DNA from: Polaromonas sp.
Lineage (GTDB): Bacteria > Pseudomonadota > Gammaproteobacteria > Burkholderiales > Burkholderiaceae
Length of the DNA: 13,327 bases
Assembly (NCBI GenBank): GCA_013823505.1
Contig: PNMH01000089.1
Coordinates: 1-13,327 of the forward strand
Direction: 5' to 3'
Shown here: positions 10,371-13,327 of the stretch, in pieces
Position numbering within the stretch: the first letter of the stretch is position 1
Layout of the letters: the number at the start of each line of letters is the position of its first letter
Translations under genes and position numbers: made by a program
Notes under the pieces: model-generated
Database searches by the model: none
Told to the model about the DNA's origin: nothing
The model's input: the letters and a program-made list of their open reading frames with translations, nothing else

Positions 10371-11582
<1,212 letters not shown>

Positions 11583-11671
11583 GTTGGCATCCTGAAACAA
11601 CGTGTCGCTTTGCAGGCAAGGAACGCGCCAGCCAGCGCTGCACCGCCCCGGTGCGCACGGTGACACTTTTG

Positions 11672-11686
11672 TGGCACAGCCCTTGC
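11672..11686 (+). promoter_or_regulatory. Putative sigma-54 (RpoN) promoter of the GST gene
   Basis: TGGCAC, 5 bases, TTGC matches the -24/-12 consensus (TGGCACG-N4-TTGC) except at the G after TGGCAC. The invariant GG is at 11673-11674 and the invariant GC at 11685-11686, with exactly 10 bases between them, and T follows. Transcription would start near 11698, giving a leader of about 30 bases with the GST ribosome site GAGGAG at 11718-11723. Activator sites would have to lie inside or near the 5' end of phaZ. No obvious sigma-70 promoter competes in this 146-base gap. Confidence 0.5.
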
Positions 11687-11728
11687 TGAGAGGAAGCGTC
11701 CACGACGCAGGGTCTACGAGGAGCAGGC

Positions 11729-12385
11729 ATGGCCACAACGGTACTCACGATCAGCAGCAAGAACTACGGTGCCTGGGCCCTGCGCGGCTGGCTCATGGCG
11801 CGCCTGGCCAAGCTGGAGTTCACCGAAAAGATCATCTCCCCCGACGATCCGGCCATGAAAGCCGAAATGCTGTTGCTCTCGGCCTCCATGCGGGTGCCGG
11901 CGCTGGAGCATGAGGGCATCCATGTGTGGGACACGCTGGCGATAGGCGAATACCTCAACGAAATCAAGCCTAAGGCAGGCTTGTTACCAGCCGACCGTGC
12001 GGCGCGTGCGCATTGCCGCGCGATCTGCGGCGAGATGCATTCGGGCTTCAGCGCCATGCGTTCGTCGTTGCCAATGAACATCAAGGCCCACTTCCCAAAT
12101 TTCAAACTCTGGTCGCGCGCGCGCACCGACATCGACCGCATCGAGGCGATATGGACGGAGTGTCTGGAAACCTATGGCGGGCCGTACCTGTTCGGTGCGA
12201 AGCCCTGCATGGCGGACGCGATGTTCGCGCCGGTGGTGACGCGTTTCATCACCTACGGGGTGGCGATCGACGAGGCGTGTGTGGCGTATTGCGACACCAT
12301 CATGGCGCTGCCGGCAATGAAGGAGTGGGTGGCGGCTGCGGAGGCTGAGCCGGATGACATTGATGAGCTGGATGCGGAGTTCTGA
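11729..12385 (+). CDS. Glutathione S-transferase family protein
   Basis: A cytoplasmic GST-fold protein of 218 residues, full length. The N-terminal thioredoxin-like domain (about 1-83) begins with a beta strand ending in ISSKNYGAWALRGWLM, where Ser9 or Ser10 would be the candidate activating hydroxyl. The cis-proline motif is MRVPALEHEG (54-63, Pro57), and the glutathione gamma-glutamyl contact that is usually Glu/Gln-Ser appears as Asp68-Thr69 in VWDTLAIGEYL. The all-alpha C-terminal domain (about 90-205) contains PYLFGAKPCMADAMFAPVVTRFITYGV (152-178), the usual core helix and N-capping region of this subgroup. The tail is acidic (DDIDELDAEF). The physiological substrate is unknown. The ribosome site is GAGGAG, 5 bases before the ATG. 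The upstream sigma-54-like site suggests conditional expression. Element A of the hairpin repeats starts 38 bases after its stop. Confidence 0.92.
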   Translation: MATTVLTISSKNYGAWALRGWLMARLAKLEFTEKIISPDDPAMKAEMLLLSASMRVPALEHEGIHVWDTLAIGEYLNEIKPKAGLLPADRAARAHCRAICGEMHSGFSAMRSSLPMNIKAHFPNFKLWSRARTDIDRIEAIWTECLETYGGPYLFGAKPCMADAMFAPVVTRFITYGVAIDEACVAYCDTIMALPAMKEWVAAAEAEPDDIDELDAEF

Positions 12386-12423
12386 GGTGTTTTCTTTCGT
12401 GGCGTTTCTCGGCTGAACCTCGC

Positions 12424-12523
12424 GGGATCGGGCACCTGGGCGCTCTGCTCCGCGAATGTCCCCCGGGGCCTGCGGCCCCTCCTCCTTTATTTCGCTGCGC
12501 AGAACGCCCAGGCGCCCGATCCC
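12424..12523 (+). repeat. Hairpin repeat element, copy A
   Basis: A roughly 100-base element able to fold almost completely. Arms 12424-12456 and 12491-12523 pair at 29 of 33 positions. The apex carries its own hairpin, GGGGCC-TGC-GGCCCC (12465-12479), followed by a pyrimidine stretch TCCTCCTTTATTTC. The central 53 bases (12448-12500) recur, inverted, in copy B with 2 differences. The outer arms (12424-12447 and 12500-12523) do not match those of copy B except loosely. It lies just downstream of the GST gene and is oriented so that GST transcription enters the core in the same sense as cupin transcription enters copy B. It may be a multicopy REP-like element or a structured 3' end; neither is proven from one window. 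Confidence 0.85.
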
Positions 12524-12570
12524 CAACAGCGGGTTGGTTCGTCACTGCAGGCATGCCCGCACGCGGGCGA

Positions 12571-12668
12571 GGCCCAGGAGGATGGGTGCGCGGCGCAGCG
12601 AAATAAAGGGGGAGGGGCCGCAGGCCCCGGAGGACATTCGCGGAGCCGCGTACCCATCCTCCCGGGCC
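12571..12668 (-). repeat. Hairpin repeat element, copy B (inverted)
   Basis: The second copy lies on the opposite strand. Arms 12571-12602 and 12637-12668 pair at 28 of 32 positions. The core 12593-12645 is the reverse complement of the copy A core with 2 mismatches, and the apical hairpin GGGGCC-GCA-GGCCCC (12614-12628) is conserved. The closing arms (12571-12592 with 12647-12668) are built on GGAGGATGGGT and its complement, different from copy A. The short sequences GGGTTGGT (12531-12538) and ACCAACCC (12670-12677) form a further small inverted repeat around this copy. Between the copies (12524-12570) there is only a minor hairpin GCCCG/CGGGC (12555-12568). The rest of the 318-base gap between GST and the cupin gene shows no coding sequence I would accept. 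Confidence 0.85.
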
Positions 12669-12703
12669 CACCAACCCAGCAGGCCAGAACTCCCCGACTC
12701 CAA

Positions 12704-13126
12704 TCAACCCCAAGGCGCAGGCTTTGGAATCTCACAAACCGGCTCAACATCCACCGTCTTGAAATCCGCCGGCGACACGATCTCCAGGTACTCCATGTCC
12801 GGTGAATAGTCGAACAGGTAGTGGCGAATCCCCGGGCGCTGGTGCACACAGTCCCCGGCCTCCACCAGCGTTACTTGGTCTTCGTACATGAACTTGGCCC
12901 AGCCCTTGATCATGATCACGATCTGGAAGTCTGCCTCGTGCCGGTGCCAGCCCGTGCCCTCTTCGGGCGGCAGGTTGGCCTTCACCAGGTGCGCGATCAC
13001 CTTGCCGTGGGTCGCGGCGGCGATGCCGAGATCGCGGTAGAGGAAAAAATCCCGCAGACCACCCGAAGCCCAGGGGTTGTCGGTGCCTTTGACGTGCGAG
13101 AACAGGGTGCTGGTGCGATCGAGCAT
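12704..13126 (-). CDS. Small single-domain cupin protein
   Basis: A predicted cytoplasmic cupin of 140 residues, one conserved beta-barrel domain. Motif 1 is GTGWHRHEADFQIVIMIKG (57-75): it keeps His61 and His63, but the position that is normally the metal-binding Glu is Gln68 (spacing from the His pair and to Gly75 fits exactly). Motif 2 is GDCVHQRPGIRH (91-102) with His102 as the third His. A metal site with 3-His plus Gln, or 3-His only, is therefore possible. The order ...WHRHE...MIKGWAKFMYED...LVEAGD is typical of small cupins of unknown role; the substrate is not predictable. The start at 13126 is fixed by AAGGAG (complement of 13133-13138) 6 bases upstream. The frame stays open to 13255 without support. 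It is divergent from aroC and converges with GST across the hairpin elements. Confidence 0.87.
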   Translation of the reverse strand: MLDRTSTLFSHVKGTDNPWASGGLRDFFLYRDLGIAAATHGKVIAHLVKANLPPEEGTGWHRHEADFQIVIMIKGWAKFMYEDQVTLVEAGDCVHQRPGIRHYLFDYSPDMEYLEIVSPADFKTVDVEPVCEIPKPAPWG

Positions 13127-13162
13127 GGTGTGCTCCTTTCTGGGGCTGCACAGCAACGATTT

Positions 13163-13175
13163 GCTGCACTGCAGC
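13163..13175. promoter_or_regulatory. Palindrome in the cupin-aroC divergent region, possible operator
   Basis: GCTGCA-C-TGCAGC is a perfect 13-base dyad, extended imperfectly as TTG...CAA. It lies 37 bases upstream of the cupin start, where a repressor or LysR-type activator site could act. A 14-base near-repeat, CAGCGCAAAGCACG (13172-13185) and CAGCGCAAGGCACG (13226-13239), follows in direct orientation with one mismatch. No regulator gene is in view; the role is a guess. Confidence 0.3.
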
Positions 13176-13277
13176 GCAAAGCACGAAATGTTCCTGTTGA
13201 CCGCTGGCCCTTGCGTCCCGTTTTCCAGCGCAAGGCACGCACCAGACTGGCCCACCGGTGCACCAGCGTGCCTCAGG

Positions 13278-13283
13278 GATAAT
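13278..13283 (+). promoter_or_regulatory. Candidate -10 box of aroC
   Basis: GATAAT is a good -10 hexamer only 7 bases before the aroC ATG. If used, the transcript would start at or within a base or two of the start codon. No convincing -35 hexamer lies 16-18 bases upstream. The overlapping AGGGA (13275-13279) could instead be a weak, distant ribosome site. Confidence 0.35.
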
Positions 13284-13290
13284 CCAGCGC

Positions 13291-13327
13291 ATGAGCGGCA
13301 ACACCTTCGGCACCCTGTTTTGCGTCA
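13291..13327 (+). CDS. aroC: Chorismate synthase, first 12 codons (cut by window edge)
   Basis: The product would convert 5-enolpyruvylshikimate-3-phosphate to chorismate, the last step of the shikimate pathway, using reduced FMN. Only MSGNTFGTLFCV is visible. This is the highly conserved N-terminus of AroC in betaproteobacteria (compare [20 protein letters not shown] in E. coli), and recognition rests on it alone. The ATG at 13291 is the only sensible start. The gene is divergent from the cupin gene with 164 bases between the starts. Confidence 0.88.
   Translation, partial: MSGNTFGTLFCV

What the first reader, a model, noticed from the sequence alone, without database searches (positions are those of the whole stretch)
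12424..12668. Two hairpin elements with a shared 53-base core and different, self-complementary stems
Copies A (12424-12523) and B (12571-12668, inverted) share a core at 51 of 53 positions, yet the arms that close each hairpin are nearly unrelated between copies and still pair within each copy (29/33 and 28/32). Divergent arms that keep pairing are the mark of selection on structure, or of a copying process that regenerates the arm. Each core also has its own small hairpin (GGGGCC...GGCCCC) and a conserved TTTATTTCGCTGCGC end. At about 100 bases it is larger than a classic REP unit. I know of no named family for it; it may be an undescribed multicopy palindromic element of this bacterial group, possibly moved by a REP-type transposase encoded elsewhere.
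Basis: partly seen in the sequence, partly recalled or inferred. Interest (0 to 1): 0.8.

Follow-up and report, generated by a model that had tools for sequence, protein, structure and literature searches.

The report
Paired hairpin repeats behind bacterial genes
Many bacteria of one environmental group carry a repeat made of two facing hairpins, placed just behind genes, whose stems change in letters but keep pairing; it looks like a mobile, possibly gene-ending element, and we found no name for it.

Summary
Units A (12424-12523, folded on the minus strand) and B (12570-12669, plus strand) belong to a multicopy family in Burkholderiales: 70 of 150 family genomes, and 0 to 124 exact cores per genome in 31 genomes of one genus. 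Each unit has a 25-bp outer stem of free sequence, a conserved internal loop and a variable tip. In a 62-row alignment all 25 stem pairs covary; over 181 units pairing drops at pair 26. Odd stem pairs are G.U on one strand (136) rather than A.C (17); that strand folds better in 61 of 62 units. The two "mismatches" between the cores of A and B are a compensating A.G/G.A swap seen across the family. Units sit mostly as head-to-head X-Y pairs just behind genes, X nearest the upstream gene (26 of 29), hardly ever between divergent genes. I read it as a non-autonomous BIME/REPIN-like mobile element, recognised as a folded single strand, serving or tolerated at gene ends. It lacks the REP tag and shows no RAYT link. 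The mobilising enzyme is unknown.

The parts
12424..12523 (-). Unit A (X-type, low-margin label): 25-nt arms 12424-12448 and 12499-12523, core 12449-12498
   Evidence: fold z -9.0 on the minus strand; aligned in A1; label
12570..12669 (+). Unit B (Y-type, low-margin label): 25-nt arms 12570-12594 and 12645-12669, core 12595-12644 (outermost pair is A.C)
12524..12569 (.). 46-nt linker between the two head-to-head units
   Evidence: 78 of 90 pairs have linkers of 37-49 nt
12462..12483 (-). Tip hairpin of A with the covarying loop positions at its ends (sense A at 12483, sense G at 12462)
12610..12631 (+). Tip hairpin of B with the swapped loop positions (G at 12610, A at 12631)
11729..12385 (+). 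Upstream gene, glutathione S-transferase-like (name recalled, not searched); ends 38 nt before unit A
   Evidence: ORF; gene caller; orthologous DNA
12704..13156 (-). Convergent neighbour, cupin-like (name recalled, not searched); ends 34 nt after unit B

Best explanation
The window holds one copy of a dispersed non-coding element of roughly 240-265 bp: two different hairpin units (X and Y) facing away from each other across a short linker. Shown: it is multicopy; exact-core counts swing from 0 to 124 within a genus; copies in one genome share their arms; stems are held at 25 bp and covary; one strand of each unit is favoured to fold. Inferred: it spreads as a non-autonomous element, in the manner of BIMEs or REPINs, when an unknown trans-acting enzyme recognises each unit as a folded single strand. 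The internal loop would be the contact and the fixed 25-bp stem the ruler between that contact and the place of cutting at the stem base. Also inferred: copies persist just behind genes, where they may stand in for ordinary terminators and end or protect transcripts. I think DNA more likely than RNA as the folded strand, because the favoured strand follows the unit's own core and not the neighbouring gene: X and Y have opposite sense relative to the upstream transcript, yet both keep the same G.U rule.
For: Multicopy and dynamic: (8 of 31 genomes have 0 exact cores, 10 have 20 or more; reversed-pattern control 0 in all 31). Dispersal: 40 pairs of one genome share arms, similar linkers and ends while flanks differ, with a sharp X-side end at CGCCCTGAAC. 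Presence, absence and remains at four orthologous junctions; at one convergent junction the pair lies Y-X in G228 and X-Y in four other genomes. Structure: 96.0% of cells paired against 65.9% shuffled and 36-43% slid; 545 double-change cells against 144. Pair 25 is Watson-Crick in 144 of 181, pair 26 in 41 of 181. Units of two further families keep 24-25 bp and fall to chance outside. Strand rule: 136 G.U to 17 A.C; X 222:13, Y 181:23; in 68 of the 92 model matches: f21 28:6, f13 30:7, f1 88:4. Sense strand more stable in 61 of 62 units, median 9.4 kcal/mol, loop included. Loop pair 41:71 in 346 units: A-G 275, G-A 42, C-G 18, A-A 10, G-G 1; in 90 non-redundant ones 70, 7, 11, 2, 0. Placement.
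Against: No enzyme or autonomous copy was found, though only PF01797 and three widely spaced pairs were looked at. No consistent target-site duplication. No match of the G228 element in 50,697 phage records and no exact match of two core patterns in IMG/VR. Empty sites are not base-perfect, so insertion and replacement cannot be told apart. Five of 68 non-redundant units had arms that do not pair (chimeric or cut). Ten of the 17 A.C cells lie at pair 25, where the strand rule is reversed. Placement behind genes with X first could come from function rather than insertion. The sense-strand preference does not tell DNA from RNA.
Confidence: 0.5

Rival explanations
1. An RNA element: the pair is a transcript-end structure (terminator, Rho loading site or RNase III-processed 3' hairpin) kept by selection. 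The 25-bp stem fits what RNase III needs (recalled), and a transcript from either side meets a pyrimidine-rich core first and a purine-rich core second.
For: Of 81 groups without gene overlap 23 are convergent, 57 tandem, 1 divergent, against 17/146/81 for gaps without the element. X is nearest the upstream gene in 26 of 29 and 31 of 36 tandem pairs. At one junction two genomes without the element have a classic terminator instead. Terminator-like hairpins are rarer at convergent ends that carry the element (9 of 60 against 16 of 46, p 0.02), not significantly at tandem ends (4 of 83 against 19 of 170, p 0.11) or overall (13 of 143 against 35 of 216, p 0.058).
Against: In the transcript of the upstream gene X is read on the poorly folding strand, yet X keeps the G.U rule as strictly as Y. 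Exact-core counts from 0 to 124 within a genus are odd for a needed RNA part. By eye, no U-tract follows the outer stems.
Confidence: 0.3
2. A MITE of a DDE transposon: X and Y are long terminal inverted repeats, the enzyme binds double-stranded ends, and the hairpins are secondary.
For: In Variovorax-like copies the outer ends are inverted repeats GTTCAGGGCGC / GCGCCCTGAAC, with a linker between the units.
Against: No consistent target duplication in 39 copies. By eye the outer ends differ between taxa while the stem length does not. Double-stranded binding does not explain covarying stems, the G.U rule or the loop swap.
Confidence: 0.1
3. A plain inverted duplication whose arms are kept complementary by intramolecular correction (template switching), without function.
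For: Long imperfect palindromes can be corrected to perfect ones (recalled).
Against: Correction would remove G.U pairs, yet G.U at stem pair 7 (X 50, Y 44 of 90) and 13 (X 43, Y 34 of 90) is common in both unit types. It gives no strand rule, no 25-bp limit in three families and no conserved loop.
Confidence: 0.03

Closest known systems
REP / BIME elements (GTAG- and CGTC-tagged; PMC3733652: abstract and sections 14 and 15 read)
   Same: Multicopy palindromes, mostly behind genes between tandem or convergent ORFs, often as facing dimers of two different units
   Different: Unit about 100 nt instead of 20-40; no conserved GTAG/CGTC tag; the conserved part is inside the hairpin and the long stem is free in sequence. 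Six Burkholderiales genera looked for (Variovorax, Acidovorax, Comamonas, Delftia, Burkholderia, Polaromonas) are not in that paper's main text
REPINs with RAYT transposases (PMC3116915 and PMC2817692: passages read)
   Same: Inverted doublet as the unit of spread, compensating changes, ordered tandem arrays (compare L179), single units as likely relics
   Different: REPIN doublets close into one long hairpin around the spacer; here each unit is its own hairpin. No RAYT link seen
Integron attC sites (recalled)
   Same: Structure kept while sequence drifts, recognised as a folded strand
   Different: No cassette array seen; variable and conserved parts are placed the other way round. No integrase was searched for
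MITEs such as RU-1/ERIC or Correia (recalled; PMC2759123 seen only in a search listing)
   Same: Short, non-coding, dispersed, with inverted ends in some taxa
   Different: No target duplication seen; two separate covarying hairpins

Membership tests
REP/BIME (tagged REP) | 20-40 bp palindrome | tested here: not met
   Units of about 92-117 nt with 25-bp stems
REP/BIME (tagged REP) | Unpaired GTAG or CGTC tag at one end | tested here: not met
   No such tag in the flank profiles of 40 copies nor, by eye, in 68 further units; GTAG occurs only as an occasional variant of the core's inner GCAG
REP/BIME (tagged REP) | Extragenic, behind genes, often dimers | tested here: met
   in G228 I count 43 pairs among the 100 exact cores listed (105 in all)
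REP/REPIN with RAYT | Cognate RAYT in the genome, flanked by the repeat | tested here: not met
   53/70 against 59/80 genomes, Fisher p 0.85; G021 with 21 matches has none; in one genus 29 of 31 genomes have exactly one, among them all 8 with no exact core; 0 of 22 fetched PF01797 loci carry a unit
MITE (DDE) | Terminal inverted repeats | tested here: inconclusive
   Present in Variovorax-like copies, not seen in other genera
MITE (DDE) | Target-site duplication | tested here: not met
   39 copies, 25 offsets by 4 lengths: 3 of 100 combinations above z 2.5 (2.6-2.7), with only 20-28% matching letters
Rfam families | Match at gathering score | tested here: not met
   Window 11500-13327: four miRNA-model and one lncRNA-model match, all far below their gathering scores; loci L264, L177, L025: none
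Intrinsic terminator | GC hairpin followed by a U-tract | tested here: inconclusive
   The tip hairpin is followed on the antisense strand by TCCTCCTTTATTT, a weak tract (sequence); group statistics are modest

The most novel reading that the evidence does not exclude
A distinct superfamily of mobile paired hairpins with a dedicated non-RAYT enzyme that reads a structured purine-rich internal loop (GGNGGA...GGNGGA, possibly a quadruplex-like fold) on one folded strand and cuts 25 bp away. The element works as a portable gene-end cassette that replaces terminators, with a fixed direction relative to the gene.
Probability: 0.3. Interest if true: 0.85.

Novelty: new variant of a known kind. Interest (0 to 1): 0.62.

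Why it matters
It would add to the known REP kinds a hairpin repeat with a different plan: fixed stem length, free stem sequence and a conserved inner loop, found in three families of Burkholderiales. Genomes of one genus with 0 and with more than 100 exact cores make the questions of how it moves, and whether it ends transcripts, directly testable in environmental strains. The strand rule offers a way to separate DNA-level from RNA-level selection in such repeats.

Tried and rejected
RAYT/IS200 transposase as mover: no co-occurrence and no adjacency. Autonomous copy between widely spaced units: L171 (650 nt apart) holds an ordinary membrane-protein-like gene (ORF list, name by eye); L172 and L173 were judged by eye only, no clear gene. 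Target duplication: none consistent. Phage or virus carriage: none with the queries used. Plasmids: three Variovorax megaplasmid records, which carry no gene annotation in the stretches held. Divergent promoter in the linker: by eye only, nothing convincing. Quadruplex in the internal loop: considered from the nearly invariant GG doublets, but the shortage of A-A fits a 41:71 pair better; left open. Literature: six core strings are in no held paper; the listings of searches showed no description. Subscription papers and repeat databases were not searched.

Rows dropped and limits: units with tip parts over 31 nt (7 of 181) were left out before the non-redundant set of 68, and six of those 68 before A1 (five with arms that do not pair: L011, L050, L057, L111, L141; one near-duplicate). 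The 181-unit counts include all of these. One search used 68 of the 92 matches, and at least one of them (L380) repeats a locus already in A1 (L116). One search used only loci with one clean pair and dropped 3 low-margin labels. In one search reverse-oriented loci were not parsed (15 forward loci with both genes were). In one search six of 20 loci were compared, and many loci lacked one flank. Counts are capped (27 and 10 scored candidates per genome) and those are exact matches, so they are lower bounds. Gene context rests on a home-made codon-usage gene caller. Species sets are not phylogenetically independent. I am not sure that the DNA energy set loaded, so that figure is not used.

Full report
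What is there. The stretch 12424-12669 lies between two convergent genes that stop at 12385 and 12704. It holds two hairpins, A (sense on the minus strand) and B (sense on the plus strand), that fold far better than shuffled sequence. The two differences between the 53-base cores face each other in the folded unit.

A family. With up to 2 mismatches the core start occurs 22 times in the nearest held genome. With a covariance model, 70 of 150 genomes of the family and 18 of 399 of the order match; of the 18, seven are in the same family, nine in one genus of family f13 and two in family f21. In 31 genomes of one genus, taken to be Variovorax from likeness to named records, exact cores number 0 to 124 per genome. 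Eight genomes have none (one of them only 62% complete), ten have 20 or more, and the reversed-pattern control is 0 everywhere.

Anatomy. Over 181 units and stem pairs 1-25 (4525 cells) I add up: 397 G.U, 46 A.C, 194 other mismatches and the rest Watson-Crick; the weakest pairs are 7 (84 Watson-Crick, 96 G.U) and 16 (97, with 39 mismatches). Pairs 26 to 30 are Watson-Crick in 41, 37, 73, 24 and 30 of 181. In the 62-row alignment, made by MAFFT and not fitted to the structure, 96.0% of cells pair, all 25 outer pairs have double changes, and slid controls fall to 36-43%. Five units with non-pairing arms had been left out of it. Units of f13 and f21, found with the model, show the same 24-25 bp arms and near-chance pairing outside. 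Inside come a 3x3 loop, a 5-bp stem, an asymmetric loop (about ATAAAGGNGGA / GGNGGACA) and a tip hairpin of free length. Loop positions 41 and 71 covary: A-G 275, G-A 42, C-G 18, A-A 10, G-G 1 of 346 units, and 70, 7, 11, 2, 0 of 90 non-redundant ones. Independence would give about 43 A-A and 37 G-G in the 346 (my arithmetic from those counts).

One strand is favoured. Odd pairs in the stems are G.U on the strand that reads GCAGCGAAATAAAGG: 136 to 17, with 53 rows for, 2 against and 7 ties. By position 19 are for and 1 against; the one against is pair 25, which holds 10 of the 17 A.C. The sense strand of the whole unit is the more stable in 61 of 62. The rule holds alike for X and Y and in units mostly not used to find it. 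X and Y are inverted, so relative to any one transcript only one of them is in its good strand. This is my main reason to prefer a DNA-level or unit-level process over selection on the neighbour's mRNA. It is an inference.

Pairs, direction and place. Among loci fetched by then 90 distinct head-to-head pairs were collected, 11 with uncertain X/Y labels, including the window's. Single units also occur. Of 83 groups, 81 do not overlap a predicted gene: 57 lie between tandem, 23 between convergent and 1 between divergent genes. Gaps without the element count 146, 17 and 81. X is nearest the upstream gene in 31 of 36 tandem pairs. In 40 pairs of one genome, chosen as 40 of its 43 pairs listed, it is so in 26 of 29 tandem cases; 9 of the 40 were convergent, none divergent and one unclassified. 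The two sets may share species.

Movement. The 40 copies of genome G228 share arms and ends but not flanks, so arms are inherited by copies. The X-side end is sharp at CGCCCTGAAC; on the Y side weak likeness runs on for about 15 bases. No consistent target duplication was seen. At the window's own junction, of 15 forward loci with both genes, three have the pair (L193, L195, L205), two truncated remains (L197, L202) and ten none. At a thiolase-like junction (name by eye) the pair is present in G228, G219 and G212, absent in G238 and G123, and reduced to outer ends in G233. At a third junction G228, G226 and G238 have the pair, G222 has a pair next to other downstream DNA, G212 and G219 have one unit, G227 and G229 instead have a classic bidirectional terminator, and G221 has none. 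At a fourth, the pair lies in one order in G228 and in the other in G212, G219, G226 and G238, while G123 and G218 have a different repeat. This fits repeated gain, loss or replacement, but flanks are too diverged to prove clean insertion.

Mechanism and limits. Known REP mobility is ascribed to RAYTs (PMC2817692, PMC3116915, passages). Here Y1 transposase genes neither track nor adjoin the element in what was examined, and no autonomous version was found in three widely spaced pairs. Terminator replacement is supported by single junctions and by a modest statistic (convergent p 0.02, tandem p 0.11, all p 0.058). I therefore put about half the weight on a non-autonomous mobile element recognised as a folded strand, and about a third on a primarily RNA-level gene-end element. 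The two are compatible.

Known or new. No Rfam family, no phage record, no exact viral-contig match and no held paper with the core letters. It works like a BIME or REPIN but fails their tag, size and enzyme tests, hence new variant of a known kind.

Noticed in passing
L429, L431, L211 and others (16 of 448 loci): A second dispersed repeat containing GGNCCGGCNAAGCCGGTTCC lies, in some relatives, at the same gene-end junctions where others carry the paired hairpins.
   Followed up: partly
L179:920-1508: Two X-Y pairs repeated head to tail with a 336-base period, like ordered BIME/REPIN arrays.
   Followed up: no
L011, L050, L141: Chimeric units whose two arms come from X and Y respectively, so that the stem no longer pairs; recombination between cores or assembly error.
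   Followed up: no
L046: A unit on a contig labelled Stagnimonas (a MAG): transfer or a mis-binned contig.
   Followed up: no
sense strand of many units, e.g. window 12481-12488, minus strand: The conserved loop reads AAAGGAGG, a Shine-Dalgarno-like string, and its complement resembles the anti-Shine-Dalgarno end of 16S rRNA (recalled).
   Followed up: no
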